Shown one piece after another: positions 8,501-31,370 of a DNA stretch of 41,637 nt. The notes under the pieces are model-generated. The model was not told the origin of the DNA, searched no databases, and was given only the letters and a program-made list of their open reading frames with translations. Each line of letters begins with the position of its first letter. Positions within the stretch are counted from its first letter, which is position 1. The translations under genes and the position numbers were made by a program. The stretch is taken from NCBI GenBank assembly GCA_000310025.1, contig FN648444.1, forward strand, positions 175,909-217,545, given 5' to 3'. Source of the stretch: Ectocarpus siliculosus. Taxonomy: Eukaryota > Sar > Phaeophyceae > Ectocarpales > Ectocarpaceae.

Positions 8501-11500
8501 CACGCTTTTGACCGTTAACCAAAAAGACACAGAAGCGTGTATCTACAGCAGTACCAAGAGGGGACACAAACAGCAAAGAACACAAAACCGTGTTTACTCA
8601 CAACGCCGTGAGCTTGAAGCCCATGAGGCAGTGCCTGAGGAGGACGTAGTGGTCCATCCCGACCATCTTGAGCAGTTCGGAGTCGTCCACCTTGCCGATC
8701 GACGCCAGCCACGAGAACGGTCCTACCAGGTACAATACAAGAGCAAAAGCGGCAAACCATCAAACACGAACACTACACAACGCACGAGATTCGCTTTCGG
8801 AAAAAAAAACAGACCACAAACAAACCTATGCATAGACACGCTGATGACATACGAGATTTCGTATTTGGATAAAACAAAACAGAACACACCCTAAGACACA
8901 CACGCATCCATGTATACGCATATGACGAACGAAATTCGTTTTCGGGCAATGGGAAAATGGTAAATGTACAATACACTCAACAAACGGGATTCGCTGTCAG
9001 AAAAGAAAAAACACTCACCGAGCGATGACGCCAACCCACAAGCCCTTCAGCCCATTAGGCACCGCGAGATGGCGGTACCGTACTGGTCCGTTTTTTTATC
9101 TCGGTGTCGAACTCGTTCCTACCCCACACGCCAAACCAGGACCCGGCCGAATCGACAAAAACGCAGGCGAAAAACATGGTCTACTGTTGTTTGAGGGTTT
9201 CAACTACAAGTACATATGGTACCGTATTCAAGAAAATAGAAAAAACAGTAGTTAAGTTGCGGTGCACGGCATACCTGGGCCAGGTTCATAAGGCGTGCGG
9301 TGAGGCCGTTGGGTCTGCCTCGGCTGTTACAAGCCAATCATTGGTGATCATGTCGTGCAGGTACGAAGGGGTGACGGGGAAGCACGGGGGAGGGCGGGCG
9401 GGCGGGCGGGCGGGCGGGGGTCGCAAATAGTGAGGCATGAGATGCGGGAAACGGAGACAGGGGGAGAACAAAACCCACGAAAATGAACATTTGCATTCAC
9501 ACGTGAGAGAGGCCAACAATCAAGACACAGAGAGGCCGCAGGCCATGACGGGTGTGCATGCCAACCGAGCAAACTGCTGCTGCCCGGCACCGCTCCCTCC
9601 GCGGTTCAGCTCATGAATTTTCTTATCCCTGGGGGGGAGGGCGTTGTTCGATGTACGCTTGTGGGTGACGAAAAAATATCACACCGTCGGCCGGGACCGA
9701 TTTCCAATGTTGGACTACTCCACTATGTAGAGGACGCGTTCATCATACGATACGTTTTCGGAGAGCTCACGACGAGGCGGTTTCAACGCCGACATTGTTG
9801 ACATGACCATCATTTCTGCCGTGGAGTAAGCGAGCCTCCGAAGTCTTCGGTCATCTAGATGCGAGTGGTATTCTTGTAGTGCCGCTCGTGCGGGCCACGT
9901 TCACGATTTCGTTAACTCGTCGCTCGTTTTTCCCTCTGGATCGCTACTATCAATCCCCCCCCCCAACAACAGACCTACATCCTACTCGTACAACGCAAGA
10001 ACCGCTGTGTCAACGGCAAACAACGATCAACCGCGATAACATATTGGACGATCATCCTCCCATACTGTAAGGTAAGAAAATCGATTGATTGCAAGGCTCG
10101 GGAGACACACATTTGCGACCTACAACCATGGACTGTACAACAATCAGCTGGTCCCGTACAACGACGTGCAGCAAGGTAACCTCTCACTCGAGGCATCGTA
10201 GTGGCTCTAAACACAGGCGCTGTGGGTAGCGCCGCTGTGCGTGCATGAGTTCGAGACAGATGCAAACCTTGAAGTCACTAAATAGAAAAGCGCCATCCAT
10301 TCAATCAGTCTTCGACAGGCAAAACCTTAACTTTGTAGTCTCCGTGTAACGTACTCTTCTGAGATCAAATTGAGAACTTTCGCGAAATGTATCTTTGTGC
10401 TAACGACGATTTCGAAAAAAAAAAGTATTGTAGTTGGGATGCATCTATACTTCAACAAAAAAAAAGGACAAGAGAAACCCCTTCCTCTTTAACCCACTTG
10501 ATGCTCAGGCACACAAACGAATGTTGTATATAAGCATGGCAATGATGTGGATCTGTTTATAAGTTGTCATGCGTAAATGCGCGATGGAAAGGCTAACTAC
10601 ACGGAACACTTTTCATTTTTTGAATGAACAAAAACGAAAACGAGGCCACGAGGCCACATCAACATCGAATGTCCGCAAACACTGCGGGGGAACATCAACA
10701 TCATGCCGCGGCGGCGTGAACCGTGGCGAAACGCCGGTGTGGCGGACAATACAAACGGCGATCGAAATGACAAAAGCACGACCCCCAGAGTGTACATGGA
10801 GCGAAGCAGAGGGCATCATCTATCTGGTTCATACTTCGTTTACCCACAAAAAATATTCTGACCTGTTGTTGCGGGAGTACAAGCTGGCATTCGTACATGG
10901 AAAGAATAAGAATACCGAAGAGTCGGGAGAGATGGCTCCCCCGTGTTAGCGTTTTCTCGTAGCGTATTTCTCCACAACTAGGAGGGTGCGAACACCAACC
11001 GATACCTTTCCGGAAAACCCTCAACGACATGTTTCCAAAACTACCCTTTTCGGCAGTGGTACCGCCCTGGTTGTGGAGAAATACGCTTAACAAAAACGCT
11101 AACACGGGGGTGCCATCTCTCCGACTCTTGACGGCATCAAGTGCATACAGCAGTACTCAAGATGCCATGCCCCCCCGCGTTCGGCAAGCTGTAACTATAC
11201 CGAGGTTTGAAAACACGAGTCGGTATAAACCATGACACACGGACGGGTTCTGCCCAGCGCTGCTACTACTGATGAAGCTGTTTGTGTGTCGCCAAGGCGG
11301 GCACCACGTCAAGGCGGGTCCTCGACCGGTATTTTTGTTGTTTTTTCATGTTGAAGGCGGTGAGAGAGTCATGGCGCAGCAACATTATTGTAGACTATGC
11401 TTGTGTTTGAAGTTGGGATCCCACTTTAAATTAAACGAACAACTGCGAAATCACGCTCCCTACTCTAACGAGAAAACACCCAAGCGTGTCCGGCCAAGTG

Positions 11501-12430
11501 ATGCGCATAGCAGCAGCAGCAGCGGCGGCGGCTGCCGTTGGAGCCAGCAGCATCCAAAGACGTCAAAGTATTCTTTTTCGAAAAGTCGAAGTTGCACCGC
11601 TCCTCTTACCGGCTCTCTCCTTGACCGCAAGTTTTTTGGGGTCGTGAGCAAGAGCGAGTTTTGAATCCATGACAGGGCGGAGTCAAGTCGTGCGCGGCGC
11701 GAGCGCAAAACACGGGGAACCGACGCGTGCACAACCATAAAGGAAATGGCGTCATAAGCACTCACCGACATCCTTACAGGAGGACATTTAAGCTGTGAGG
11801 CCTTGTGCGCCCGCCTCTGCTCCAACAGAGGGAACGATGTTCGACGCCACTTGAATCAAGATCGAAATATTTATGAAAATTCTCAAATCGCACCACAGCG
11901 GCACGCCAACACAACAACGCACCTGGTAGATGCCGCGCTTGTTCTTGTTCCTTCGCCAGCACTCGAACAGGAGGTACACGATCACGCCCTACACACAGCA
12001 GTAGAGGGGCAGCAGGGGGGATTCTTGTCAACGAGGTCTGCACCACGGTGAAAGGAGAACTTCAGTCGCTCGCCGTTGGGTTTCGCGCCACACAGATTGA
12101 TGATGCCGGAGAGGCATCACCTATTTCTTCTCCGAGAGGTACCGTACACGACGACGACAGCCGGAGCCGACCAACCCGCGGGTCACGTCGAAGCTGTTCT
12201 CACGCCGGCTGCCTTGAGACACCCACGCCGACAGCGTTGGTTTGTCCAGCACGCTCCACCTGCATGCAATCAACCGTCTCTCTCGATGTGGTAATGTCGG
12301 CACGACAGGGTATACAGAATTCCCCAATCAACTCGGCGCGAAACCTGAGTGATCGCACCTGCAACGCCGCGAACGCCGCGGTGGAGATCACCGGAGACCA
12401 CTCCGACGAGGTCTGGTCGTCGTCATCCAT
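415..12430 (-). CDS. OSCA/CSC1/TMEM63-like calcium-permeable stress-gated channel, 3'-truncated by window edge
   Basis: Members of this family are plasma-membrane or endomembrane cation channels opened by hyperosmotic or mechanical stress. Proposed exons, 5' to 3' on the minus strand: 12430-12359, 11988-11923, 11792-11766, 11619-11610, 8722-8602, 8059-7949, 7723-7634, 6868-6733, 5998-5879, 5113-5015, 4455-4409, 3975-3882, 2992-2927, 2579-2458, 1936-1817, 1242-1176, 534-415. Together they give 1488 in-frame bases (496 codons) with GT-AG ends. The start ATG opens MDDDDQTSSEWSP, just ahead of the first membrane segment. Family marks in order: TM0 (about residues 14-32), GPFSWLASIGKVDDSELLKM, TM1 and TM2, the GDPD-to-VENIP stretch, YFDHLFPGK, CCGGEK, APAPNDVIWDN, then TM3-TM5. 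The 3' half (pore helices TM6-TM10) is outside the window. The 27-bp and 10-bp exons and the 4409 donor are the least certain parts. Family assignment is strong; exact splice sites are inferred. Confidence 0.85.
1130..1156. repeat. TATAG pentanucleotide repeat
   Basis: About five near-perfect TATAG units lie in the intron between two channel exons. No function is apparent. Confidence 0.7.
2780..2910. repeat. Pyrimidine (TC)n / (CTCTGT)n tract
   Basis: A long CT-rich simple repeat sits directly downstream (on the minus strand) of the 2992-2927 channel exon. In that transcript it reads as a GA-rich purine tract just after the splice donor. Confidence 0.75.
3068..3187. repeat. Dispersed repeat, copy A
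   Basis: This stretch, beginning CACATTAAAAACCG and ending near GGTACACT, matches 20209-20330 in the same order and orientation, with blocks such as AGTACCTT, CCGTGGTCAC and AAAGGGTACACT-like sequence conserved. It lies in a channel-gene intron and is probably an old interspersed element. It is non-coding as far as visible. Confidence 0.7.
4668..4725. repeat. 9-bp minisatellite (GCAGCAGAG)n
   Basis: Five or so tandem GCAGCAGAG/GGCAGCAGA units lie in an intron of the channel gene. The array stays open in several frames, which produces alanine- or cysteine-rich shadow frames. Confidence 0.8.
6328..6684. repeat. Intronic tandem duplications
   Basis: Two pairs of direct repeats lie in one channel-gene intron. 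AACGAGCACAGCAGTCACTA occurs near 6332 and 6430. A roughly 60-bp block (CACACACCGA..ATTCGTTAAA..CTTGTATCCTCAAC..GTGTCCT..AAAAATGG) occurs near 6521-6580 and again at 6624-6684. Confidence 0.75.
7022..7243. mobile_element. MITE-like inverted-repeat element, copy 1
   Basis: The left arm starts TACCGTAAAG, then GCGGAGACATGGCACC, then GACCGATTTTCAAAGCCC and GCTCCACAAC. The right arm is its imperfect reverse complement, ending TTACGGTA. The arms are about 70 bp with a central spacer of about 80 bp. It has no coding capacity and lies within a channel-gene intron. The termini match 10913-11135 and 24551-25356. Confidence 0.7.
8780..9010. repeat. Degenerate tandem repeat around ACGARATTCGYTTTCGG
   Basis: Four spaced variants of an ACGAGATTCGCTTTCGG-like motif followed by A-rich DNA occur near 8788, 8850, 8930 and 8985 in a channel-gene intron. 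The motif core is itself near-palindromic. Confidence 0.55.
9393..9420. repeat. (GGGC)n G-rich run
   Basis: About six GGGC units run on the plus strand, ending in a longer G run. Four or more G-triplets close together could form a G-quadruplex. In the channel pre-mRNA (minus strand) this is C-rich. Confidence 0.7.
9661..9860. mobile_element. Degenerate MITE-like element
   Basis: It carries AATATCACACCG..GACCGATTTCCAATGTTGG..ACTACTCCAC, which resembles the reverse complement of the right part of 25690-25885 and the arm of 7022-7243. A possible opposite arm (GTGGAGTAAGC..CGGTCA) lies near 9822-9852. Boundaries are uncertain. Confidence 0.4.
10913..11135. mobile_element. MITE-like inverted-repeat element, copy 2
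   Basis: The left arm runs from TACCGAAGAGTCGGGAGAGA through CCCCCGTGTTAGCGTTTT to GCGTATTTCTCCACAAC. The right arm mirrors it almost base for base, starting GTTGTGGAGAAATACGC and ending CTCTCCGACTCTTGACGGCA. The arms are about 65 bp. The outer GTCGGAGAGATGGCACC block is shared with the element at 24551-25356. It lies in the 2.9-kb channel-gene intron. Confidence 0.75.
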
Positions 12431-13119
12431 CCTTCACAAGATCGTCGGTACCCTCTCTGTCTCTCTCCGTGCGAAGACTAGGCTGGGGCGGCTAGTGTGG
12501 CCCTTTCGCTCTTTCGCTGAGCCAACGGCCGCACTCCTCTCGCTCTCAGGCGAACGACGACGTCCCGCTCTCTTCACGCGCGCCGCTTCCCAAGCGTCTC
12601 CTACGGCTCGGCTATGTTGTCAGTTCGCAGCGCACTCACTGCCCTGTTGTGAAATAGAATTGTTGATGTTGCACTGCTGTGTCGCCGGCAGCAGCTGGTC
12701 CACACGGAGCGTGCCAAAAAGGAGCTCCGCCGAATGTTCAACTATGCCCCTTCTATTTTTTGCTCCTGTCTGACAACCCCCCGTTCGGTGCCTGGTGCAG
12801 TACATTTTACCATCCGTGCGAAGGGATCTTTACTTCTAAATTTACTGTCTCCTCATTGGTTGGAGATGCGCGTGCGCGCGCTCGCTCGGTGAACCTCTTT
12901 TTGGTTCTATTCACAAAGCTCTCCTGGGGTGGGGAAACCCCGGCGCTGTAGCTACATTTCTCCGCACGCCGCGCACGAGGTGCGCGTGCTGTGAAGGACG
13001 GACAGGGTGGCCGTGCTACCTTATCGACACGTAGCCTCTAGAGAGAGCATTGCATAGCGTGGCTTCCACCGTTGGCCACCACAGCAGCGGTCAGTCGTTG
13101 ATGCAAGGAGGTGAGCGGC
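12431..13119. promoter_or_regulatory. Divergent intergenic region between channel and KDZ-like genes
   Basis: The inferred starts at 12430 (minus) and 13120 (plus) are 689 bp apart, so both promoters and 5' untranslated regions should lie here. A CCAAT-type box in inverted form (ATTGG) occurs near 12855, followed by an alternating GCGCGTGCGCGCGC stretch. No convincing TATA box was seen. The regulatory role is inferred from position. Confidence 0.45.
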
Positions 13120-13869
13120 ATGCTGCCGAGCACGCGCTCTGCTGGCGGCGCGCATCATGATGCTGATCATGATGCAGGCGCGGATGACTGCGTGGATGGT
13201 GCGGCTGGTCGCCAGCACAAGCCGTTGTCGCACCCCTTGCCCGCAGCCCCATGCGCGAACACTGGAGAGAGTTCCAACTTCTTGCAGCAAAACCCTCCTC
13301 GAGAACGGACAGCGACCTCTTCCGGTAGCGAGCCGTCGGGCAATTCCCATCTGTCGGTCAGCGGCGCGCCTGGCGGTGTAGCCACCGTCGCGAACACATT
13401 TCCTTGCGACACTCCTGCGGCTATCGGAGCGGCTCGCAGAAGTGTGAGTGGACGTGAATCACCACCAGCGAAACGCCACGCGTCGCAAAGCCCATCATCC
13501 CGGCGGAGTTTGGGACGAGATGCAAGAAATTCATGCGAGGGCTTCGGGGCCGGTGAACGTCGCGGCAGGGTGCTGCACTCGTTCCTTGCTACAGCTGTGC
13601 AGATGTCCCAAGCATCGGAGGCCTTGGGGACGCCAGGGGAGCTATCAGGTGATGGTTTCGAATTCGCGGAACCACAATACGCCCCTGTCGTCTGCCATTG
13701 GGGTACATACGGGACCGGGATACTGTTCTACCGGTACGCACGGGCCGAGTGCACCACTACTACATTGGGAGGTAGAGGGAGTAGCGCAGCTAAACTATGA
13801 ACGCTCACGCCAACTTGGAGCAATGTTGCCACCATGGCAGCGCCTAGCCAACGAAGTGCCGTGGCGACC

Positions 13870-13920
<51 letters not shown>

Positions 13921-16900
13921 ACAGCAACAGCTGTCAGCCGCCGGTTGCTTTGGAGGGGTATGGCCGCCGCCCCGGCCGCCGCCACGGCTTTTGATGGCGC
14001 AGCAGGGCGCAGCTGGCGGGGCGGTGTTTCAGCCGCAGCGGGATAGACGGGTACGTCAGCCACTTCCGCCGCTGCCGTTGCCTGTGCAGCAGAGGACGGC
14101 AGGTGGCATCGTCGGTGACGCCCTGAACGGCCATGGTTTACATCTGGTTTTGCAGCATGGCGCACCGCATGGCTCAGGGACAGGCGGTCATGAGGAGGAA
14201 GACGAGGAGGGGGGGGGGGAGGCAAAGGATGCCTCCAGCGGAAAGCCCGTCCCTGTCATCGTGCCTGCTAATGCTACGTTGGCGAAGCGCAGCTGGTGCT
14301 GTTCGAAAAGCAAGACAGTTACTTCGATTTGTCGTGGGTGTCTCAAACGATGGCATTGCCACGTCGACCATGGGCTGATCGACCTTACCAAGGATCGCTT
14401 CATTTGCTGCTTCTGCGATACGAAGACGAAGTCGGCATGTCTGTGTCACGCGTGAGTACCCAATATCGTTTTCCGCTGTTCAGTTTCTTTGCTCAATTGC
14501 AATTCTCTTAAATTATGTGACCAAGAGTGATGTGCCAAATCGAGTTCTCGGATGCTTCTCGCACACGTGGGTGTCACCCGATTCGATGCCACCCATGTGG
14601 TTTGTTTGAGAGGAATATGCAACAATATCTTGACTTCCACAGCGCTCGCGCAGCCTGGTAGGCTGTCACCTGTTTTCACCTAGTTGCTCCGGGAATGTTG
14701 CTGGTGATCTGTATCGACTCCAACTTTTCTGGTTGCTTGACCATCGGTGTTTGTTAGGTCTTCACCCTCTCGCAGTGCGAACAAGACCGGAGCGTCCACA
14801 ATACGACCTGCTCTCAGCGTGCGTGCTGTACGTATACTCATTTCCCCCCCCTCTATTCTTCCCACCATCACATGCTTCGTACTCATACAGGTGCAAGAAG
14901 AACAAAGCTGATAAGCGAGCGGCATCCCAACGAGCTCAAGCCGGCCACATCCACGGGAGTAGCGTGTCCCGAGTGGTTCACCGCCAGGCTCGAACCAGCG
15001 CTTTCAAGCTCCGTCTGCCTCTCACGGTGGCGGCGCGCAACTCTAGAGATAGACAAAAGGCACTGTTTTCGGTCTCCACTACCGCCCGCGGCGACCGTGT
15101 CATGGTCATCACCGACGTCACCGCCGAGCAACCTGGTGCGCCTGCAAGCTGCATCGTGAACTGCTGCGATAACCGATGCCACAAGTGAGTCGATGTAGTA
15201 GTTGGGGGATGTCACGAAACAACAGTGCTTGTGTGGTGTTCGATACTCTTCCTTCTCACCGGCAAATCTCCGATCGAAACTACACGTTATTGTTGCAACC
15301 CAACGCTTGTATAACTCGTTTGGAAAAAGAAAAGACATTTTGCAGGGCACAGGTAGGGGCCCGGCCGTTCTGCATTCTCATTTTATTTTTCGACAGTTGC
15401 TGCTCGCTAAATTTATCAGAAATTAATCGGCATATATATATTTTTCTGACGATGCACTGTCACTTTCACGGTTGCTTTTGTTTGGTTTTGCAGTGTGCAA
15501 GCGGAACCCGAGCACGCGCCAAACGCCGAGCAGGTTGCAGCGGGCCAATGTGAGCACGCTGACGTCATTCTCGGAAATGGGACCACTCCGAAGGCGGATA
15601 TTCCTGAAGCAGAGCCGGTTGTCTTTGGCAAGGATGGGGAAGGGATCGAAAGCGTTGGGGATGCAGCGATAACCCAGATGATTTTGACTCAGGGTAGCTT
15701 TGACACTATTCTAAGGATGGCAGCGACTGCAGAGGAGCATGGGGTGCCGCTGTTGATGCGCTTAGGCGAGACTCAGACGTATGTTGTGTACCATCCGGGT
15801 CATCGGTCTATTCCTGGCAGCTGGGCACACGTCGAGACGGATTTCCCGCAACCACCCGGGTCGAAGAAAGCGCCATCCACGAGAAGGCGGACCACTGAAA
15901 GGAAGCAGATCCAGTGCAAGGTGATAGTCTACTACTGCCGATGCATGACTATTTTTTATTCGGAGCTCTAGAGTATTGAATGTATGTAGAGCGCTTCTGC
16001 TGTGTATGNNNNNNNNNNNNNNNNNNNNNNNNNNNNNNNNNNNNNNNNNNNNNNNNNNNNNNNNNNNNNNNNNNNNNNNNNNNNNNNNNNNNNNNNNNNN
16101 NNNNNNNNNNNNNNNNNNNNNNNNNNNNNNNNNNNNNNNNNNNNNNNNNNNNNNNNNNNNNNNNNNNNNNNNNNNNNNNNNNNNNNNNNNNNNNNNNNNN
16201 NNNNNNNNNNNNNNNNNNNNNNNNNNNNNNNNNNNNNNNNNNNNNNNNNNNNNNNNNNNNNNNNNNNNNNNNNNNNNNNNNNNNNNNNNNNNNNNNNNNN
16301 NNNNNNNNNNNNNNNNNNNNNNNNNNNNNNNNNNNNNNNNNNNNNNNNNNNNNNNNNNNNNNNNNNNNNNNNNNNNNNNNNNNNNNNNNNNNNNNNNNNN
16401 GTACCCGGTGATGACTGGCAAGAGCACGGCTATTTCGTTTTCGGAGAGACTCTACTCGTCCATCTGTCCCACATGGACGCGACGAGGCGGGCGGTGCTCA
16501 GTGGTACGGCAATCAGCCACGCATTCGACAATCTCCTCCGTCCTTTGGCCGACAACCTGATATGGATGGCCCGGAACAAGCTGGCCAAGAGGTGACTGTG
16601 AAAATCATCGTCATCCACTGTTTGTTGTTCTTTGCCTTCCGCTTGTAGCACGGTACGATCCAATGTGTCACGGGGGGGTGTTTACCTAAAACTGCAAGGG
16701 AAACACCCGTCTCGGGGAGTAGTTCCCCATGATCAGGCTAGGAAAAAAATAATAGTCCCTTCGACCTCCAGCCCCGAAACACTTCTAGTCTATCTTAAAT
16801 CAAACGCTCCATCTTCAAACGTGCAGGTGTCGCAATGCCAAGGCGGTAGGTCGTAGCCACTGTATTTATCCCCCACATTTTGACCTCGAAATCGAATGTA

Positions 16901-19900
16901 CGACAACCTTATTCCGGGTTTCCTCGGGGATCAAAGTACGATATTGTTTCAACGAGTCATCGAGCACACTTTTCCCTCAGGGCTGTTGTTATCTAAGTCG
17001 TTCCCAGTACATTTCGTGTCCCCCTCCCAGGGGACGTTGGATGAGGGTACCGCAAAGCGCTTTCAGTACGCACGGAGGTGCGAGTGTTTTCCAAATCATT
17101 TCGTTCGTTTTTGCGGGGCCCGGTCCCACCGCATCTCTTCTCATTTTTTTTGCCGCACCCCTCGTGCCAAGTCAAACCAACGCGCGGTAGGAAAGGACAA
17201 CGAAGTCTTTGGGCGGATCTTAGGATAGGCACAAGGAGGGGTTAGGGAAAAATAGCTTTAACATGTTTGGTATATTGCTGTAGTATCTCGGTTGGTCTGC
17301 ATCGTGCAACAAGTAGTTTGATCAGCTGGGTGGAGTGCAAATTCGTTGCAGAGAGGGTTGGTGAGCATCGGTAGTACATTGTTCTTGCCTACAGTACTTG
17401 TCATTTATAATCGCACGGTACTTGCGTGTAAGGCGGCATGTACCTCCGTGCCAGGAAAACAACACTATGTTGAGGAAGCTAATGTGTACCGGCAACATGC
17501 ACATCAGCTGCGGCGTGTCTCAAGCGATTTTTCTCAAGAATGTCACCCTCGAGGTGGCACGGTCAACCGTCGTGCGATCGTTCTTGAAAGGTGTTCATGC
17601 CCTACTTTATCGCAGTACCGAATTAAATACCGGAGTGGAAAATGCAAATAGATTACTTTGTTTTGGTTTTTTGCATCACGATGCGGACTGGTTCCCTGGG
17701 CGTTGGTACTACGCGGTGCAGCATGGACGTTGATACGTAGGGGCGTGACCCCCCAACGCCTGGAATGAAGCTCACTCCCCTTCCGGCATGTTCCTGTTGC
17801 TGTCCCCGGCGTACCGCTCTCTCCTGCCAGAGCGCTGACCAACAACTACTTGAAAAAGCTGTTGCTTGACGCGTATCTGGCGTTTGAAGCCCTCACCGAC
17901 CACCCTTACGGGTTCTTCAGCTTCATCGACGGTTTTTTTCCGCTCCTTTCGAGTTTTGACGGCTGCGCCAAGCTGGCAGTCAACATCTGCATCGAGAAGT
18001 ACCTGCAACAGCGCATGAAGCAAGTGATCGACATGGACCTTGATGCCATCTGGCTCGTCATCAGCATGCTGTCGCCGATGGTGTTCGGAATGCGGCTGCA
18101 GTTCTCACAAAACACGCCGCTGACTTTTTGCCCCCAAAACCGCAAGTCCAACATCATCGTGGTGCCTGCTCGTGGACATGCCCCGCGTAGCGGAGATGCA
18201 CAGGCTGCCGATGGCCAGAAACTGATGGAGCGTGTCCGGGAGAACGAGGATGGTCTTGGGCTATCGGAGATTTTGGAGGGCATGTCGCTGGACGGGCTGA
18301 AGGGCCTCTATCGTTTGTGCTTTGGGCCGCGAGCGCCGGGAATTAGCAGGTACTTTTCACGAGAAGCTACAGCGATTTCTTTTGTCCATATTTGCCAAAA
18401 TTCTTGAGGTGGTAGCGCTTATTACAGAATGGACCGCTAATTTGCCGTAGTATTTAGTTTTTTTCCCCCCTTTGTTACTCTGCAATGATCATGTTGCGTG
18501 TTGTTCGAGAAGAACCAGTGCTTCCGTGAGGCACTATGAGAAATCGTTTCTTGGTTTCTACGCAGGGGTTGTACTTGTCATGGTTCCACCGCACATTTGA
18601 AGTGGCTCAATTGAGGGCTGAGAGGTAGCTCGAGACTATTGCAGTAGTTGATTCAACAGGTATCATTATTCATATCGAAAACATCGACAGCTGTTCGCGC
18701 GTTTGTTTTCCGTGTGGGGGAGTATTGGATAGCGTCGGAAATATGGACGCCCGCCGTATGTGTCCAATTTATGCCTTCGGGCCGGGTGTTTCGCTCGTCA
18801 AGGTGACGTCTGCTGCAAACCTCCAAACCTGTTCATCTCATATCTCAGGAAAAGATTCGGGACGCCGAAAGTGCTTGCGCACCTATGTTGGAACCTTTCA
18901 TTTTTCCACACGAAGTAGGGCGTGTTGGCATGTAGAGCAAAGAGCAATTGCACTGCCATGAGCACTGATCGCTCTCATACAAGATTTTCTGTAGGTCTCT
19001 TGTCAACTGCCCTCTATCCACTCCCCCCACTCTCAGGTACCCCAACAGGGTGCTGCTGATTGAGCTGTTCAAGACGGTGGAGAAGCTCTGGCGGGAGAAC
19101 AACCATGGAAAGGAGGATTGCTCAAAGTTCTTCATGGAAAGGGGGGCATGGTTGGTCTCGTCTGGGGTGGAGGGGGGGTACAGCCCGGACGGAGTCCAGA
19201 CGTGCCATATGTTCATGCTACGGGCGGAGAGCCCCACAGACTTGGCCGTGCTCCTGTTGCACCACGTGGTGAGTGCCCCGTTGTAGAGAAACACAATTAT
19301 CGTATTGATCACGAGTGCTCGTTCAAAAGATCCCGGACTCTTGAAAACAATGAAAGTCGAATACGTTCGACAGATGGTGAGCAGGCTTTGATTAACGAAG
19401 GTGTGCACATTTTGCGTTGGTATAGATCAAAAGTGTAGTTGTACATACTTCCGGTCTTTGTTGCAAAACGACAAGTGCCGATTAGGGCATCTAGCGGGTT
19501 GAAGCAACATCTACGTGGAGGAGACAACATGGTCACCTACGAGGTGTCTGCATGCTGCGATGTTCACGCACTCCCAACCTTGAAACTATCGTAGAGCACC
19601 ACCACGCCGACGCGAAAGTACTCACGGCTGACTTTTGGTTCGTCCACCAGTAATTGGGCGGGACAAGCACAAACCGCAATCCGGTTGTGTAAAGGTCTCT
19701 TTCACGACATGTGCTTCTTGGTGTCCTTGCGCTTATGATAAACGACGTACTCGTTGTTGGCCGTGTTTTTCGAATATCGTACAACCGACTTCGGGTCAAC
19801 CCTAAGTTTAAACTCCGCGCATGGAGCACAGAAAAAATGACGTTGGTCAAATTGATGCAAGCGCGTGTGAAGCTAAAGTCTGTCTGTGTGTGCACGCATG

Positions 19901-22900
19901 ATTTCTTGAAAACTCAGTACTGGAAGCCCGAAACCATGCCGCAGGTGCGGCCACAGCGATAGAGATACCACGCCCACGCATGTCCATACCGGAAGCGAAA
20001 ACTGCGTGTCGTTTCAGAATAAAATAAAACTTGGAAGTTTTATGTGGAAGTAGAGTTCAACCGCCCTCTGAACGAAAGGGGCAAGGGGCAAGGAAAAGGA
20101 AACACGTACTGCGGTGCATGACCCAAAGCACGTCTGCCAGCCACACCCGCGCGTGCTTTTCGTGGGTACACTATGGTAGTTCCACGCACGGCTTTTGTTG
20201 TTTTTTGTGTTCACATTAAAAACCGCCCCGGTCTCCGCGCAGTACCTTTTAATATCCGTATACTACTGGTACAACTGACGCGGACGCCTTCCGTGGTCAC
20301 AAGCCAACTACACCCCCAAAAGGGTACACTATACATTTTCTAGAACGAAACGAAAATATAAAATGGGCTAGGAAAAATTTCTCCAAATGCGGAAACAGCG
20401 TAGCACAAAAATAACATGCGTCCAACAATTCGCCATTTCGAAACATGTTGCCACCTGTGTCTACAACAGGTGCGTGCATCAATATCCCAAACAAGGACCC
20501 CCTTGTTTTTTCACAGAGCGGCTGCAGCTTTTTTTCATCCAATCTTTCGTGTCAAGCCTAGCCACCTGCCGAAAGCTCGCGTTTGCCACATAGGCCACCG
20601 CTTCCCTCCAAATACCCCCAAGCCGCCAAGCTAGATATGCACAATCCACAGGTGGTCACGAGACCGTGTACATGCACAGGAAGCATGGTCTTTGGGAGAA
20701 TTTTGGTGCACATTTAAGATGTAGAACGTTTCCAGGAAATGATGTTTCTCTGTGTTGTAATGAGCAGTAAACACGACTCCAATCGATTGAACTGGTTGCC
20801 CCACTCGCTCTTGGAGGCCCGGAGTGCGCATGTGTTGTGCCCAAGCCAGAGATAAATATTGTATAGAACGCCACCAACGCGCTACTTCTAACACAACTCA
20901 AAGCATGCACGAAGAAAATATGACCATCAATCAAGCAGGCCGTAGGATAGGATGTAGACATAATATCTTATCGACTCCAACTCCAATGCTCGCACCAGTG
21001 TTAATTCTGGGAACAGTTGGTCGTGCGCACGGCCAGACCCTGTGTCGCTTTTTTTATCTGAAATCTAGTGTTGTCCAAAAAATCAAGTCGGAATCGAAGT
21101 CTGCACATGTACTGTTGTCAAAGGGAGGAATCGAAGTCTGCACATGTGCTGTTCTCAAAGGGAGGCATGGAATTGTGTCACCTCTTCGGAAAAGTTTGCA
21201 ATTTTTCCTCGTCTTGTCTCGCACATTCCCCCGTTGGACTCTTCTCGGCAAGTACGCAAACAGCGTCCACGACCTCGGGGTTGTCTACACAACATGTGTG
21301 TGACCCTCATCTCGAAAGGCTTTTAACCGCAATAAATGGGCACCGGGTTAGAACAACTTGGCAGTCTGTGTTAAGTCTATTGCTGGCGTATCCGTCTCAG
21401 ATTCGTTTGTGAACTGTCTGTTGAATACGTCAGGCGAAAACACGACAGTAGAACCCAAGAAAACTTTGTCAACTTCCCACGCTCTACCTTCACCCATGCT
21501 TTCATGTCCCCCGTGTCCCCCATTGTTAATGCAGCACATGCCTATCCTCGTCATCACGGACATCATGTGTCGTGTAGGTCCGATCGTCCACGACCGCTGC
21601 CAGACGGCGGCGCCGAACGAAGGAGTTCTTCCCCGGGTTGGCGAGCCTGACGAGCATGGCATGCGGAAGGTGGACATCCCAGCACTAGCGCCTCTGGGAA
21701 ATTACTTTCTTGGCGCCGATCAGGTTTCGGAGCCCGTACCGCAGGAGAAATGCACTCAACGCAATGTGTACAATCTCCTGCGCGATGCGCAAACTTCTCC
21801 TCCGGTTCAACGGTTGGACTTCGGTCAGCTTCTCAGCGTCTCAGCATGGCAGGACAGAGAAGAAGGGACCACCCGCCGTGGACTTCGTGCTGCTTGCTCG
21901 GGCCCGTTTGCGGAACCTGCGCCGCCGAAGCCACCACTCCATGGACCTCTTTGAGGGTAGTGGCTGTTCTGAACGTGCGCCTCACCAAGCTCGTGGCTTT
22001 CATCAGCGAAGGACAAGACAAGGAGGTCCCGCCAGCAGTACTTGTCGAGGAAGAGCAGATGGCCCCGGGCTCGGTGCTGCCGACGTTATCGGCGCAGAGC
22101 GTGTTCTCTACACGCGTTCTCGCGGTGGCGACTGGGTCCACCACCGGCAAGGCTCCGGAACTACCTGCCTTCTCTCAGCATCTTTTCGAACCTGTGGCTG
22201 GCCAGAATGATCTTCGACCTGCGGCGCTCGATCACCTGGTTTTGACCTACGCCCGGGTGAGTACGTCTCCTTCGCGCAGCTGACGTAGTGGGCTGTTGTG
22301 CTTTGTCTTTGGCGGTATTATCAATACTGGTGGTTGTTCGTTGCTCCGTTGGTCAAGTGGGTTTATTTTCGCGTTCCTCATTGAACATCGTTGTCCCTCC
22401 TTCTTTTTTTTTCTCCCACCTTACGTTCCTTCCGTTTTCCTTCTCGGCGTCGCCGGTTGATTTGATTTCTGCGCGCGGCAAAACCTACCTTGTTTCATGT
22501 TTTGTTATTCAATTCGGAGCAGTGAACATAGGTAGATCACTGCTGACATATTGACATATTACTCATGTGTTGCTGCAATTTGAAAAACAATGCTAGAGAC
22601 GCTAGAGCGGGGAACAAGAACATTTTTCTCGCATGCTGGTAAGGACATGCGCATGCTCTGTGCCCACCGCTAAAACTACCACACCTCTCCCATTCAGCGC
22701 ATGCACTTCGTTGCATATTAATAGGCTGTAGTGCTCGAATCTCTTGAGTTGCTGCCATGTCAACAAGACTACCCAGCAATGTTTTTTTTTTTCTGATGCT
22801 TGTACAGAGTTTCCTGTATAAATGCATTAAAGCAGCCCATTGCGGTAACCCAACTATTTAGACAAATTTTTCGATCACACGGTTTACTTTCCGTCCCCTT

Positions 22901-23857
22901 CTTCGGGACCTCTGACATCTGGATCAGGCCAAGGAGGAGTTCATCGCGATTGGACTTCAACCTGCCAACCAGTGCGCAAAGAAGAGGGCAGGTACGAGGA
23001 CGTGGACACTTGCGTGTTAGGTGTTGAGGCTAGTCGTTTTGTTGGTCCAATAATCTAAGGACCACCAATCTACCGGGCTGTGTACGTTTTTCCATAATGT
23101 GTCAATGTTGGTGCCGGTATCAGGCCGGTATGGTACATGTCGTTCGTTACCTCCAAGCCGGCTCAAAATGATCAAACCTTAGTCAAAACGTTTTCATGAG
23201 CCAACACATGGCATGCCGTTTTTTTGTACGTCATCTCTGTTCGTCCTCACAGAACTGGCTGTGCGCTCAGGAGCATGCTTCGGGTCGGCGGTGCAGCGTA
23301 CGAAAGCCCTTCAGATTCAGGTGGCTCAACATCAACCGGGGAAAAGCGCTGACACCAATGGCATCGTGGAAGAGTATGGCCTTCCGTTCGACATCCAACC
23401 GCTGCAGGAGGACCCCACGGCGACAGTGTGCAGAACGCACGCCTTGGGGAGCAATGCCGGGCCTTACTACGGGCCTGACGCCCTGCACGACTGCAACCAC
23501 GGGGATGACTGCCGCCAAAAGTACGGTGGGATAGACTCATGCGCCCAGCTCTCGGGGGTCAACCTCAACGCGCACGAGCAGAACCATGCGAAGAAGAAAA
23601 AATTTCTGCACATGTTGAATGTCATGAAATTTGACCGCTTTGCGTTCATGGTAACTCTGATCAACGAGACCGAGAATGAGGCAATAAACCGCAAATCGGT
23701 GGCAAACATGGTCAAGCGTGTTCGAGGCCATGGCTCGGAACGAGTAGAGATTTGCCAGGCTCAGGTTTGGTTCTGCGGCAGATGCTTCTGCCAGAAGTCT
23801 CTAATGCGATCATTCGACCAGTTCGGCCGGGTCCGGCTGACCTTTGTTAAGCCATAG
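13120..23857 (+). CDS. KDZ transposase-like, cysteine-cluster protein (intron-rich, likely domesticated)
   Basis: Proposed exons: 13120-13648, 13776-14451, 14891-15184, 15494-15920, (gap)-16591, 17831-18349, 19037-19268, 21535-21823, 21961-22256, 22928-22991, 23253-23857. Every junction outside the gap is phase-compatible, giving 642 codons before the gap and 731 residues after it. The N-terminal part is Ser/Gly/Arg-rich with a glutamine run (about residues 208-229) and an acidic HEEEDEEGGGE patch. A Cys/His cluster follows (about 348-402, with C-x2-C and W-C-C spacings, ending CDTKTKSACLCHACK) and a second CCDNRC patch near 495. The last exon has H-D-C..., then GVNLNAHEQNHAKKKKFL..MLNVMKFDRFAFM, resembling the iNsEinEQ.n..L..yM..nFm block of KDZ-type transposases. 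HHVHMPILVITDIMC resembles the strand carrying a catalytic Asp. The exact start, and whether the protein still transposes DNA, are unknown. A cysteine-cluster nuclear protein derived from a transposase is the best guess. Confidence 0.6.
13776..15184 (+). other. PolyQ stretch and cysteine/histidine cluster of the KDZ-like gene
   Basis: Two consecutive exons encode a CAG-coded glutamine run, a proline/glutamine-rich spacer, and then a Cys/His-rich region. The cluster starts SWCCSKSKTVTSICRGCLKR, continues WHCHVDHGLIDLTKDRFICC, and crosses the intron as CHA|CKKNKADKR. It looks like a zinc-binding module of the kind (CxC clusters) found beside KDZ transposases. That comparison is from family knowledge; metal binding is inferred. 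Confidence 0.55.
13868..13932 (+). repeat. CAG trinucleotide repeat encoding polyglutamine
   Basis: An uninterrupted CAG run followed by CAG/CAA mixed codons gives about 21 glutamines in the frame used by the gene. The repeat length is likely to vary between strains. Confidence 0.85.
16009..16400. other. Assembly gap (392 N)
   Basis: A run of N lies between 16009 and 16400. The sequence is already coding at its right border (reading PGDDWQEHGYFVFGETL), so the gap hides the start of one exon of the KDZ-like gene and its acceptor. The preceding exon ends at a GTGATA donor at 15921. Confidence 0.95.
20209..20330. repeat. Dispersed repeat, copy B
   Basis: This is the second copy of the element at 3068-3187, in the same orientation, in an intron of the KDZ-like gene. 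GGGTACACTAT occurs at its end and again just upstream near 20164, so a short direct repeat may flank the copy. Confidence 0.65.
21084..21166. repeat. Tandem 38-bp duplication
   Basis: ATCGAAGTCTGCACATGT.CTGTT.TCAAAGGGAGG is present twice in a row in an intron of the KDZ-like gene, with two or three differences, suggesting a recent duplication. Confidence 0.8.
21535..23857 (+). other. Putative KDZ-like C-terminal catalytic region
   Basis: The last four exons are preceded by an exon (19037-19268) ending FMLRAESPTDLAVLLLHHV. They supply VITDIMCRVGPIVHDRC, a variable linker with VAVLNVRLTKLVAFISEGQ, AKEEFIAIGLQPANQC and the terminal exon. The terminal exon has H/C pairs (LHDCNHGDDCRQKYGG), the HEQNH block, a conserved hydrophobic MLNVMKFDRFAFMVTLIN stretch and a final CQAQVWFCGRCFCQ cysteine cluster. 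In relatives the equivalent EQ motif supplies an acidic catalytic residue. Whether Asp/Asp/Glu are all intact cannot be judged from sequence reading alone. Confidence 0.5.
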
Positions 23858-24550
23858 CCATACTTTTGGGGGGGCTCGGATGTTGTTGTACGATGTCTCG
23901 GATGCTTTGTGGTACGGTGTCCGCTTGAGCTGAACCGCTTGCGCCATTACGTCATTTCGCCCGGTTCGCAGTGGTGGGTAGAGTTAATTTTTTTTTGTAG
24001 TCTTTCGGCTGATGGTGTGTCGAGGCTGGTGGTAGGAGTATTCGGCTCCGCGTTTTGGGGGATAGATACGTTTGGTTTTTCTTGAGGGGAATTCATTGGT
24101 TTCGCTACACGATAGGGTTGCTTCAAGAACTATTTCCGAGCCCACCGACGTTCCGTTTGTCAGCCTTTCACACCACTTCCAGTACTATCGACTGCTCGCT
24201 GTTTTTTGTGTTTCCAAAAGCGCGATGTATCTTTTGCCTTCGAGCCTTGGCTTGAAAGATGCGTATCCAAGGACAACCAGACCTGTTCCCAAATGTGAAA
24301 GTAACGAATTGTCGAAGAACCGTTTTTGATCCTATATCGAAAACAAGGCAGACCTACCTACCATTGGGTTCAGCTCATTGCGTTCCATCCGGATGAGGGT
24401 AGAAATTATTTTGTGTTCTGTCCAAGAAAGTTGTCTGGTGCCCACTTGGCCACTTGCCCACTTGGCCACTTGGCAATAATTTTCAGGTTGCGTTTTGGCA
24501 TTCAATACCATTTCGTCCTGGACTTGTGGTACGTACATGCCGTTTCGAGA

Positions 24551-25356
24551 TACCGTCATGGTCGGAGAGATGGCACCGGGTGCGATCGTTTTTTTAAATG
24601 TTCTTCCTTGAGTTTTTATCGCGCCCCGGTGCCATGTCTCCGACCCCGGTGCGGGAATGCAATTAGATCTTTTTGATTACATTTTCAAGGCACCCCGGTG
24701 CGATCTCTCCGACCGGTGCGATCTCCGATGAAATACACACAGGTGTTGTATGATTGGGAGCATACCGGTAACGGCAACGTAGGCTGGTACGCCTTAAAAT
24801 CCATACAGCGAGTGGTGTCGTGTTTGATGCGAGTTTGGCTATAGAGTGACGACAAGAAAGGATGTCTTTTCCATCTGAGGTACTGGTACATACGGCATCA
24901 GTTGTCTTCCGCTTTCGTTTCGGTGTTCCTCTACGGATACCAGTACGTACGAAGCAACGTACGAAGCAACAATAGCTTCGTGTTGTGTAAGGTGGGGTAG
25001 GATGTGGCTTGTACGTTGTGTGTCTAGTTGAGAGTATACGGTTGGCAACTTCCATACCAATTCAAATATGAAATCAACTGGCATCCCGTGTGAACCGCGA
25101 CCATGCATACGTACATGCATTGGGTGGCGCTCCGCTGACACCATCCCCACATGTATAAGGAACACACATGTACCTCACTCCGGCAGCTGAAAATGAGCTC
25201 AATCTTTGGGTTTGGCGGTCGGTGTGCGATCTCACTGACCCCGGTGCGTAAATGGATGTAAATCGTGCCGTTCTCGTATTTTTTTAGCAACCCCGTGCCA
25301 TCTCCCCGACCGGTGCCACCTCTCAGACCGGTCCTATCTCTCCGACTATTACGGTA
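24551..25356. mobile_element. 806-bp non-autonomous DNA-transposon-like element
   Basis: The left end reads TACCGTCATGGTCGGAGAG followed by ATGGCACCGG. The right end, reverse-complemented, reads TACCGTAATAGTCGGAGAG followed by ATAGGACCGG. Inside each end, variants of GGTCGGAGAGATGGCACCGG recur several times in both orientations (near 24560, 24625, 24690, 24710, 25230, 25290, 25312, 25330). There is no transposase frame, so it would need proteins supplied elsewhere. It shares terminal sequence with the small elements at 7022-7243 and 10913-11135. Target-site duplications were not clear. Confidence 0.7.
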
Positions 25357-25689
25357 TATATTAAAGCTATGTTGTTTTCTTTCCGCGTTCACCCCTTCTA
25401 AACCAAAGCTTAACAAGCAGGCTATCGGCGAGACTATGTCGGCTCCTCTCTCCCCTCCTGCAACTCCCCCTTCAACCAACTTCCCCTTCAACCTACATGA
25501 AGTCTACAAGTAAGTATGCTTCAGACAACGTGGCGACGACTCGTTCAAACCTGGTGTATAATATCTCCTCAATATACCCTGCGCAAAAACTTTGGGTTTT
25601 TCTCGATAGTTTGACATGGGAAGGTGTTGAATCTAGTATCTGCCATTTGCAACCTACATGGGAGCAGATCATCTGCGATGTGTGCCTGT

Positions 25690-25885
25690 AAATGCAGCAG
25701 CCTACCCGCCTGGACCGATTTCCAAACATCAATTACTCCACGAAGAGAATGCGTGCATGAAACGACTGTTTCAGAAGGCTCTTGACAGAGCGGCTTCAAC
25801 GCCGCCGTTTCCGGCGCTGCCACGCTTCTGCTGTGAAAGAATGGAGCTTGGAAAATCGGTCGAGGGGGTGTGATATCTTGTGTCA
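25690..25885. mobile_element. MITE-like inverted-repeat element, diverged copy
   Basis: GACCGATTTCCAAAC near 25713 faces GCTTGGAAAATCGGTC near 25846, and CGAGGGGGTGTGATATC closes the right side. The same GACCGATTTYCAA..ACTCCAC series occurs in 7022-7243 and 9661-9860. No open frame of interest. Confidence 0.5.
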
Positions 25886-27086
25886 TACCTTGTTTAGGTG
25901 TAGCCTGAGCCGGAAATGGGTAGGCTTTCGACGCCTTATAGGGTGGCTGTGGGGGATTGGGGGAAACATGCTTCTTCAGACGTCGTATGGGTTGTTGTGC
26001 AGTGTTGTGCCTGGTTGGACGTTGGCAAGCTATCAATCTGGAAGCAGATGGCAGCGGCAGATCTGGATGCTGATGCGCCTACCTCTAGCGTTGCGGGGCA
26101 ATCGGTTGTTTCTTTCGTGTACAGCCAGCGCAGAAAGCGGTTCCGGTCATCTCGAAGCTGTGCAAAGGCCTAGACCTACAGCACCTAGACTCAGCTAGAT
26201 ATTCCACTCGCTCTTCGTACAGCAGCAGTACACGCCCTACCGAACGGCCGGCAGCCCGGTAGCGCGCACATACAAATCGGTGCCCCCGACAACAGTCTAC
26301 ATTGTAGACTAATTGATTGCTTTCGGCGGTCCTGACATGTTTTTCTAGCAGCATTCTTCTCCTCCCCTACACACCATGAGTCCCCTGTGCGCGCAGGAAC
26401 ATACTCCACTGAACATACGAGCAGGCGGGCTCTGCAAGCCTGCACAGCTCGGGCTTCAGTGTGCAAGCTAGCAGAGCTGAGCTAGCCGAGTACCACCTCC
26501 AAACCGTCAAGAACCGCGTGCGCGCGCGCCCAAAAAGTACGGCATGCTTTCCGAACCTTCCGGAAACCCTACCCCCGAACCCCCTAAAGATCCTTTCGCA
26601 CGATTGGTAATCCGACCTCGCCTGGTGCCTCTTTCGTGCTGCGGTAACTGCCCATTTGTACTGCTGTGCACACACGCACGTCATTCGGCTGTGGCTGCCG
26701 CTGGCGCTATCTTCCTCCCTAGGCCGGCAGCGAGTACCAGCGAGCAAGGGCAACACGGAGAATAAGAGCGAACAGGCGCACGCACATACAAATCGTTTCG
26801 CGCACTTTTTTTTCCTCCGCTTTTTTTTTTCGAACCTGAGCAATCACGCGGCGTATGCATGCTACGGCGCAAAGGTGCTGGTGCCGAGAGCAACAGAGAC
26901 AGCAGGGCGTCTTGGCTTGCTGGTGGTGAGCATTAGAATTATGGTGAGATGGTTGAAGTTGTCCTGGAGATGGAATCGGCCTGTAGGTACTCCTTTTCAG
27001 ATATCAACCTCTAGGTGGTTTGCCGTCTGATACAGCAGCGACGCCCTCACCTACCTCCGTTCCTGCTGTCACCAGGCTTGAGTGCG

Positions 27087-27332
27087 ATGAGGTTATCACG
27101 ATGCCGACTGCTGTACCTGTGCTGCGGGATCGCCGTCACCGTCGGTCTATTTGCCACATTGCTACGGCCAAGCACAGTGACAGAATACGCATCTGCTGCG
27201 GCGAAGCTCTCGCCCTCCTCGCGAATCCCCGCCGGCATGCATGTTGAATTGGACGCCCTGGAGGCCGCTGACCCTGCCGCTTCTGCTGCCGCCGTGGCAG
27301 CCATAGATTCAGCCAGCCCGAAACTTTTGCAG
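27087..27332 (+). other. Signal-anchor exon of the PC-esterase-like gene
   Basis: The 82-codon first exon starts with two arginines within six residues and then a hydrophobic stretch (LLYLCCGIAVTVGLFATLL, about residues 8-26). An Ala/Ser-rich lumenal stem follows. The arrangement indicates a type II membrane protein with its catalytic domain in the Golgi or ER lumen. The exon ends AAACTTTTGCAG|GTGTGA. Confidence 0.7.
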
Positions 27333-30300
27333 GTGTGAATGCTGTGGGGTTGGGGTCTCTCATTGCGTCTGTCTACCTGTCGTAGGCTTGCTTGCATCCG
27401 AGCGAGGAGGGATGCGGTATGTATGTATTTGTAGGTAACATGCACAGAGGATCCTGACTCGGTTTGTGTAGAAATACCAACGGCGCAACGGCGGCGGGAT
27501 TCAGCAGGATTGGAATTGCGGGGTGTGCATGTGTGCCGCAGTAACTACGCTTCCGCTCCTCTGGACTGCCCTCGCCGAGGGTGGTCCGGGGCCCGCCAGT
27601 GGGTTTATTCCACGCAAAGACCACCACGGAGACACGAGCTCAACCCTCGAAGGGAACGTAGTCCCGAGTTTGGTGGATAGGAGTTACCGCGGTCGCGAGA
27701 TCGGGGTATCTCCCGTTGGACCAAATCGGGCATCAGCATCGCGTTGAACCCTAATGTCCCGGTTTGCACTATGCAGTTTGGACACCGGGGTTGAGCAGCA
27801 GCGGAGAACGCAGGGGGGGGTGGCCCGGATAGGAATAGAGGGGCTGCACACTGTGCGGGCATGCATGGGAGAAACGAGGAAGGAGTGGAGTCGGGCAGAG
27901 CAGGAAGGTTGCACCTGCCTTCGAAGAACGACACGAACGGGGCTAACAGCAGACACCTAGCCAGAAAATCCACGCGGCGACTGGGCGAACGCAAAAACCC
28001 CTTTTTAACCGGGGTCGATCGTATCCCGGTTAATTTTCTCTTTCGTTTGGGTAAAAAGTCGCGTCTTGGAGGACTTTTGTGGGGGTCCACTTTTTATTTT
28101 TCTAGAAAGGTGTGCCCCCTCTTTGGGTTGTTTGCTTGTGACCACGGAAGGCGTCCACGTCAGTTGGACCAGTACTATACGGACATTAGAAGGTACTGAG
28201 CGGAGACCGGGACGGTTTTTAATGCGAAGACCAACAACAACAACAACAATGGAGGGGTATGATCGGCCGTTGCTGTACACATCACCTCGACGGTATATCG
28301 ATCGAATTTGAGCGTAAACCAAAAAAAAATAAACGGGGCTGCTCCTTCGTACCTCGTACCATGTATGCATAGATGTTGAGTTTCCACGGTGGCAGTCGTA
28401 AGGCTGACCCAGAACACAGCTACAGCAGTAGCGGCTACGGTCTAAGAGAGGGTCGTGACAAGCTTCAAGAATCTCCCTTAATTTTGGTATTTTTGGACTC
28501 GTTCTCTACGGATAAGAGAGGATTGCTCTGATGTTTAGTGTGTTAGCTGGATGTAGGAGAGAGAAAACACAGTCCGGTTTTGCGCGCACTGGCGGCGTAC
28601 GCTCTCGTTCTGGCATCTTGAACTGTACTACATATGCAATAAAGATACGTGCGAGTTTCGTGGCCGTGACGCCACTTTTATTCTCTTAAATCGGTACTTG
28701 CTCTGTCTTACTCCGTAGTCGATACTCTGCACGAATACAATGAGCAAACTCAGAGAGGGTCCCACCACTCGCGGAAACATGGATCCAGCAGGTGGTCCTC
28801 AATCTTCACCGTCAATAAAGACGTCGTAACATCAACTCGAAGATTATCTCGGGGTAGTTTCTCTGTAATGCCGTATACTTTTGCGGTACAAATAGGAGTT
28901 CATAAGAATAGTTCGAAGTATGGCTGAGGTTCAACAGTCGCGGAGGCGTTTCCTTCCGTTTTCACGAGGGTTGCGGTAGTTGCGATCCTTAACGTTGCCT
29001 GAACCAGGTCCTCTTTGCCCACCGACGCACTCTCTCCGGCGTTCGGCGTTCGCGTTCCACGTTTTATGTGTGTGTGTACTCATAGTCGCGCATGCCGTAG
29101 TCGTTAGACCATTGACCTTACATCCCTACAAAGCCGGGGCGGAGCACGCCGGGTCCTCACCGGACCAGGCTCTCACATTACCAAGCGCGAAGCACCGTGA
29201 GTTATTCGGCGAGTCGCATGGAGGGTGCGCTGCGTCCTGCTAAGGGTGTTCGGCGTTTTGTGCTTACTTCCTTGCATACGGACGACAGCTACGAAAGGCT
29301 TACTGTATTTCCTGGTGCTTTCACTTCCAGAGACAGTGATAAGCACTGTGTAACTGCCTCGAGGGTGCTTGACCAATATAACACAACGTGGTGCGATCAT
29401 CCCCTTTGCGCGGAGTGAGGGTTCTCGACCCCGCACAACATGATCTACTCGACCACCGTTATGGTTACCGCACAAAAAAACAAAGTCAAAGAAGAAAGCG
29501 TGCAACCTGGTTGCCGAGCTCACGAAGTGATCGGCTCGTTTTATAACGTCGTTGTCCAGCGACGAAAACCCAACCCCGATGGCGACGGGGGGACCAGGGG
29601 GGTTTTCTGACACGTGTATTGCCTTTTTGATCCCCCCTTCGCCACCTTCTTTTTCTCTCCAGGAGCTGTATCGCCTGGCGCGAGATGACGTGCTGGGGAT
29701 ACTTGGCGATGATGATGGGGCAAAAGCGTGCGTCAACTGGAGAAAAAAGCCTAACCAGGGGTGCACCGACCCCAGCCAGTGCGGAAAAGGTGGCCGTCTT
29801 TTCCCCCTGCCCAATGCACTCGTGTATGTAGCTTTTGCTGCCGGAGTTTCCTGTGCATTATGAAAGAAAATGTGAGCGCGAGACAAGCGTGTGCATTCGT
29901 CGGCGTGAATCGTGGGTTGCGGCTGATGTGCGGTGTGGCACAGCGGCAAGAGAGCGCGTGACGCATCCCGACCGTTTGTTATAGCTGTGCCATCACGCAG
30001 AAACAACGGTGCGTTGTCACAGCCATAAGCACCACTGCTGTCGACTACTTGGTACTTGTGCTGTTCATCCTACTCGTACCGATATGCCTTAGATGTTTGT
30101 CGGAGTCTTCGCGTGACCAAGACCCGTCCTGAACCTCAACAGCAGTACCCACTAGCCATCGACGATAAACAGAAACGAAGGGCTCTTGCCAGAAAATACC
30201 CTTGCGCCCCAGCAAACGCCAAAAGCCCTTTGCGCGACAAACGTGGGCTCTGTTCGCGAAGTACATGAACCGTTAGTCCTGAGGATATACAGCGATTATA

Positions 30301-31333
30301 GCGGTGTTGGTGTTGACGTTGGTGATCGGTGATGGAAGCACCCGTGACGACGAACTTGCCGGTGCAGGGTGGCTGTTCCGGCGAAAGGGCTTGCTGCTAG
30401 CCGTGATGTTCACCGCAGGGGGCGATGACGGCGAAGACCCTTCAGTTGCAACAACCGCAGTCCAAACAAGCAGCGGGACCGCGGGAAGCGGGGCCCCCAC
30501 AGATTGGATCCATGTCGCGGAAGGAGGGGACAGGCGGGAAGGCCTCTCGCCGCATGAATGGAGTGCGGGGACGCCTGGGATGATGACCGTGGTGGGGTTG
30601 AGGGAGGGGGCGGACGGAGAGCTGTCCGACTGCAACAGCCGAGACCTCAGCATGCTGCTGAGGCTGCAAGGCCCCGAAGCGTTGGCTGAGGTACTGTTCA
30701 ACCCGTCTGCTGCTAGCACTGCTGCTAGCACTGCTACTGCAGAAATTACCATTTTAATAGTATGACGAATATTGCCAAGGTGTTTCGCTCCTGCTTTGCC
30801 GATACAACCGTGATCCACGACCGTGCACGTATAGAGGCAAACCCGGGGTGGCGTTCTTGAAATTTTCTCCGATGGGACAAGGAGAAGAGGAACAGCCAGA
30901 CGCTGGCTTGCTTCGCTTCCCTTTTACAGTAATTTAAGAGACGCTTAAACTCTTTCTTCGAAGGTTCCTTTGATAACCACGGACATTTGAAGAAGAGAAG
31001 GTAAGAGGAGGTTTGTACGGTGAACTCGGCACTTCCGCCTTGTGAAGACGACATCAATACTAGCAGCACGGTTTTCGTGCGTTTGAGCATATCCTCCAAC
31101 CTATTACCAACTCCTTTTGATGATTGGTTGGCCACTGCGGCGTGACGTGCCTCCAACGAATGCGACTTGTTCTTGGTTGACGACGAAAGGCCGCGATGCC
31201 TGTTGCGGGAAGGTGTGCGTGGACCGTGCTGTTCCAGCCCACGCTGGAGGGTGTCTACACGCTGGACGTAACGCTCCTCGACTGGAGAGGCGGCCTCGAG
31301 GCGCACCAGTCATTGTGAGCGTAGCATGGCGTC

Positions 31334-31370
<37 letters not shown>

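What the first reader, a model, noticed from the sequence alone, without database searches (positions are those of the whole stretch)
13120..23857. Intron-rich KDZ-like transposase gene with polyQ and cysteine clusters
The C-terminal exon carries H/C pairs and a HEQNH..MLNVMKFDRFAFM block that resembles KDZ transposases. Yet the gene is split into at least 11 phase-consistent exons over 10.7 kb, has a long low-complexity and polyQ N-terminus, and has no visible flanking terminal repeats. That combination fits a domesticated transposase with a host role rather than a live element.
Basis: partly seen in the sequence, partly recalled or inferred. Interest (0 to 1): 0.75.

Follow-up and report, generated by a model that had tools for sequence, protein, structure and literature searches.

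The report
Large multi-copy KDZ-like DNA transposon
The suspected host gene is the many-intron transposase gene of a 13.8-kb jumping DNA element that sits, nearly identical, at many places in the same (probably brown-algal) genome, so it is an ordinary though large transposon and not a tamed one.

Summary
The exon chain is real but is not a domesticated gene. The element fills window 12798-26619 (13,822 bp). Matches elsewhere in the genome share its borders: 22 of 46 begin at 12792-12799, 34 of 45 end at 26619-26623. Its ends form an imperfect 35-bp inverted repeat (26 of 35 identical). Of 7 copies with both ends read, 5 (window included) have exact 8-bp target duplications, one matches 7 of 8, one none. 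The last exon has 19 full-length copies at 96-100% identity, 18 without a stop. A sister family, 51% identical in that exon, also has inverted repeats and a flanking duplication. KDZ affinity is indirect: more distant relatives carry Pfam CxC4, the KDZ-associated cluster, above cut-off, but the KDZ domain was not found and the window chain matches no Pfam family. Eight KDZ families are already reported from Ectocarpus (PMC12477816); this may be one.

The parts
12790..12797 (.). left target-site duplication GCCTGGTG
12798..26619 (+). whole transposon copy, 13,822 bp
   Evidence: shared match borders; length
12798..12832 (+). left terminal inverted repeat (35 bp, 26 of 35 identical to the right one)
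   Evidence: core motif at 66 places in the genome, reversed control 0
   Evidence: no match in relatives; indels and dN/dS 1.8 against C16
13802..14451 (+). open stretch with polyQ and a Cys-rich end (exon 2; its 5' border not determined); not conserved in relatives
14891..15184 (+). exon 3
   Evidence: conserved in the sister family only
15494..15920 (+). exon 4
   Evidence: conserved in sister and more distant loci
16009..16400 (.). N gap; in the C3 copy this place holds a further exon with a CPKCG motif and the start of exon 5 (CVDCG)
16401..16591 (+). visible part of exon 5; homologous to the CxC4-bearing exon of relatives
   Evidence: 41% identical to L061, E 2e-11; CxC4 in L061 and L062 chains
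17831..18349 (+). exon 6, holds the first invariant D (FDGC/VDAC motif)
19037..19268 (+). exon 7
   Evidence: no match in relatives
23253..23857 (+). last exon with the invariant E (HEQ/HES), Cys/His pairs and stop codon
26585..26619 (-). right terminal inverted repeat
26620..26627 (.). right target-site duplication GCCTGGTG

Best explanation
The locus is one copy of a giant cut-and-paste DNA transposon of the KDZ type. Shown: shared sharp borders, imperfect 35-bp TIRs, 8-bp target duplications, many near-identical copies at different sites, and one multi-exon gene whose exons are conserved in diverged families, at least one of which is itself an element with TIRs and a flanking duplication. 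Inferred: the gene makes a DD(E/D) transposase of RNase H fold that uses its zinc clusters (CxC4-like and others) to bind the ends, excises the element and inserts it with an 8-bp staggered cut; because it acts in trans, broken or internally deleted copies can be moved by intact ones. No host role is needed.
For: Last exon: 44 matches in the own genome, 19 full-length at 96-100%. Borders. TIR 26 of 35, reached in 0 of 100,000 shuffles; TIR core at 66 places against 0 for the reversed control. TSDs: 5 exact and one 7-of-8 among 7 copies. Sister family with 35-of-40 TIR and flanking duplication. CxC4 above cut-off in two relatives' chains and at 5 genome places, a sixth below it; each of the six lies 5-10 kb upstream, same strand, of a last-exon relative listed. 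Window exon 5 is homologous to that exon. D and E invariant in 6 of 6, D..C in exon 8 in 7 of 7 rows. Zisupton and one Dileera family make 8-bp duplications (PMC12730594, passages). Ectocarpus has eight KDZ families of generally over 10 kb (PMC12477816).
Against: No match to the KDZ domain PF18758, and no CxC4 match in the window family itself. The resemblance of the D, D, E motifs to KDZ is recalled, not computed. The window copy is broken in exon 8 and partly hidden by a gap. One of seven end pairs has no duplication. Ten right ends abut a piece of the sister family's 5' end, so copies are not all independent insertions. Polymorphism in the last exon, 7 nonsynonymous and 4 synonymous variable codons among 12 loci, is only weakly constrained (pN/pS about 0.5 by my division).
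Confidence: 0.83

Rival explanations
1. A DNA transposon, but of another superfamily with duplications of about 8 bp (hAT-, P- or MULE-like), or of an unnamed one that shares only a CxC4-like cluster with KDZ.
For: 8-bp duplications also occur in hAT (PMC12730594 passage). KDZ domain not detected.
Against: No hAT, P or MULE Pfam match either; CxC4 above cut-off in relatives.
Confidence: 0.13
2. A domesticated transposase with a host role, at this one locus among mobile relatives.
For: Long introns, one gene, conserved exons.
Against: This very locus has TIRs and its own 8-bp duplication; its last exon is identical in protein to another copy's (C17); its exon 8 frame is broken relative to other copies.
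Confidence: 0.03
3. Many copies are segmental duplications or assembly duplicates of one locus, not transpositions.
For: Some copies share flanks: two left ends, three right ends among those fetched; ten right ends abut a piece of the sister family.
Against: Borders are the same while flanks differ at 19 of 20 left and 17 of 19 right ends; duplications differ between copies.
Confidence: 0.01

Closest known systems
Giant KDZ DNA transposons of Ectocarpus sp. 7 (Dinatale et al. 2025, PMC12477816; abstract, sections 5 and 15 and passages seen)
   Same: Giant (over 10 kb), many introns allowed for in their gene models, low divergence between copies, transposase genes often broken; very likely the same or a closely related genome (inference).
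Zisupton / Dileera / Kyakuja (KDZ) of fungi and fish (PMC12730594 passages; Boehne 2012 and Iyer 2014 recalled)
   Same: 8-bp target duplications (Zisupton, one Dileera family), Cys clusters of the CxC type in relatives.
   Different: KDZ domain profile does not match; no TET/JBP partner seen; ends are C...G-type imperfect TIRs, unlike the CA..TG ends without TIRs described for Kyakuja.
Pfam PF18717 CxC4
   Same: Relatives' chains score 41.1 and 34.4 bits against a cut-off of 26.9.
   Different: The window family's homologous exon does not score.

Membership tests
KDZ superfamily | KDZ transposase domain (PF18758) | tested here: inconclusive
   No match in exons, chains or genome, but the genome search rang in no control, so sensitivity is unknown.
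KDZ superfamily | CxC-type cysteine cluster upstream of the transposase core | tested here: met
   In relatives, not in the window family itself: CxC4 over cut-off; the window's exon 5 is homologous.
KDZ superfamily | 8-bp target-site duplication | tested here: met
   5 exact and one 7-of-8 among 7 end pairs; the sister's shared flanking stretch is 10 bp, 8 bp if the border is set by the TIR.
KDZ superfamily | terminal inverted repeats (as in Zisupton) | tested here: met
   26 of 35; sister 35 of 40.
KDZ superfamily | three catalytic acids in an RNase H fold | tested here: inconclusive
   D, D, E conserved across families; fold not predicted.
domesticated transposase gene | no longer mobile: single or few copies, no TIR or TSD | tested here: not met
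domesticated transposase gene | conserved at the same locus in other species | not testable with these tools
   no other brown-algal genome held

The most novel reading that the evidence does not exclude
The window family and its diverged relatives may form a deep brown-algal lineage beside Kyakuja, Dileera and Zisupton, sharing with them only the CxC4 cluster and 8-bp duplications, with a catalytic core too diverged for the KDZ profile and spread over many exons (D, D and E on exons 6, 8 and the last). That would be a separate clade or superfamily.
Probability: 0.25. Interest if true: 0.4.

Novelty: new member of a known kind. Interest (0 to 1): 0.2.

Why it matters
It removes a false candidate for a domesticated transposase and replaces it with a delimited element: ends, target duplication, gene model and a sister family. 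That helps masking and annotation, since the gene could otherwise be called as a host gene many times over. It also suggests that the Pfam KDZ profile misses this lineage while CxC4 finds its more distant relatives.

Tried and rejected
Pfam searches by exon and by joined chain found no KDZ in the window family; weak hits of the polyQ exon (TFIIA, Spt20) are below cut-off and low-complexity. Relatives in IMG/VR (68 pattern matches, none confirmed) and in GTDB genomes (55, none confirmed). PDB sequences: one hit, E 0.25, taken as chance. An accessory gene was sought; no other conserved ORF except a short match outside exons. In one search exon 5 was read in a wrong frame and exons 6, 7 and 11 against C16 rest on short chance alignments; I do not use them. 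Exact-string reading of exon 8 failed in two loci and was redone by alignment. Six other ORFs of the window: no Pfam match at E 0.01. The paper search for CxC4 or KDZ transposase held 161 papers; none of the 15 listed titles is about KDZ. Other paper searches: of which I opened two papers.

Full report
What was claimed.

The gene. The last exon (23253-23857) has 44 matches in the window's own genome: 19 full-length at 96-100% identity (the window copy is one), 18 of them without a stop; nine near-full-length at 50-52% (three with one stop); the rest are partial or lie at 35-43%. Exons 3 to 8 and the last are found by tblastn or profile in one or more of six diverged loci. Of 232 ORFs of 40 aa or more on both strands of the element, ORFs over the N gap left out, 14 had a hit in relatives: 6 exons, 7 antisense or out-of-frame shadows of exons, and 1 short match outside exons. 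So the chain is a real gene, and no second conserved gene was seen. Splice phases agree at the junctions that can be read (by eye). Among 12 loci of the last exon (8 distinct sequences) 11 codons vary, 4 synonymously and 7 not, which is weak constraint at best.

Corrections to the gene. None of 8 other copies that cover the place has them; over the part covered, 6 of the 8 read open and 2 have one stop, and only two were read over the whole exon. Mutation or assembly error cannot be told apart here. The N gap (16009-16400) hides an exon with a CPKCG motif and the start of exon 5 with CVDCG, visible in the C3 copy, which itself has a 13-base insertion in exon 4. The first exon and the polyQ region have no match in relatives. 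Against the C16 copy (90% identical over the 5' part) the first exon shows a 7- and a 1-base indel and dN/dS 1.8, the polyQ exon 0.72 with indels of 51, 6, 2 and 1 bases, exons 3 and 4 0.32 and 0.42; exon 4 of C16 also has an 8-base indel and a stop. The polyQ part is not shown to be a conserved feature.

The element. With window 1-14500 as query, 22 of 46 matches begin at 12792-12799; with 23200-41637, 34 of 45 end at window 26619-26623. Both lists hold only the best candidates, and neither lists the window's own copy. The two ends form an inverted repeat in register with the borders, 26 of 35 identical, reached by 0 of 100,000 shuffles and by none of the other 35-mers among 13,361 scanned. 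Its core occurs at 66 places against 0 for the reversed control. Of 40 ends fetched 39 were readable; flanks differ at 19 of 20 left ends and 17 of 19 right ends. Seven copies have both ends read: exact 8-bp duplications in the window, C2, C3, C91 and C26; 7 of 8 in C184; none in C6, whose two parts span about 3.4 kb. Against full independence: ten right ends listed (C3:1396818, C12, C14, C89, C217, C285, C290, C311, C381, C489) abut a piece of the sister family's 5' end, as if one nested insertion had been multiplied.

Sister family. A family 51% identical in the last exon is also an element. DNA matches share its left border; its C2 copy runs 16,740 bp with a 35-of-40 inverted repeat and the flanking duplication GGCCATGT; the shared stretch is 10 bp, so the length 8 rests on the border set by the repeat. 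Only this one copy was read.

What kind. No exon or chain of the window family matches a relevant Pfam model. PF18758 was not found in the genome, but that search rang in no control. Two relatives' chains match CxC4 at 41.1 and 34.4 bits against a cut-off of 26.9. The genome search gave six CxC4 places, five over the cut-off; each of the six lies 5-10 kb upstream, on the same strand, of a last-exon relative. The window's exon 5 is 41% identical to the CxC4-bearing exon of L061 (E 2e-11). A D in exon 6 and an E in the last exon are invariant in 6 of 6, and exon 8 has D..C in 7 of 7 rows. That these look like KDZ motifs is recalled, not computed. Zisupton and one Dileera family make 8-bp duplications (PMC12730594, passages).

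Literature. PMC12477816 (abstract, sections 5 and 15, passages) reports eight KDZ families, 6403 copies, 148 intact, 1.80% of the Ectocarpus genome, giant elements generally over 10 kb, with transposase genes frequently predicted to be broken. This family may be one of the eight.

Verdict. A giant KDZ-like DNA transposon, probably mobile in the recent past, in a copy that is itself broken as assembled. The domestication reading fails its own refutation test. The mechanism beyond that (zinc clusters binding the ends, DDE cutting with an 8-bp stagger, movement of broken copies in trans) is inferred from the type of element.

Noticed in passing
window 40509-41163: A stretch of about 655 bp with 24-nt inverted repeats at its ends (96% complementary) and two further copies at 90-91%: a likely small non-autonomous transposon.
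   Followed up: no
window 3043-3524: A repeat of about 480 bp with 17 near-full-length matches at 94-98% in the genome list, capped list.
   Followed up: no
window 20195-20311 and 28127-28243: An inverted pair, 117 nt, 89% complementary, one arm in the large intron of the transposase gene and one outside the element; part also resembles 3059-3092.
   Followed up: no
G000 right ends on C3, C12, C14, C89, C217, C285, C290, C311, C381, C489: Ten copies of the element abut a piece of the sister family's 5' end, suggesting one element nested in a derivative of the other and both multiplied together.
   Followed up: partly
G000:C18:29812-29887: A right-type and a left-type end motif face each other with 24 bases between them: perhaps a minute deletion derivative.
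   Followed up: no
window 25708-25741, 9690-9723, 7059-7092: A 34-base motif shared between the element's 3' part and two places outside it; the neighbouring stretch also resembles the sister family.
   Followed up: no
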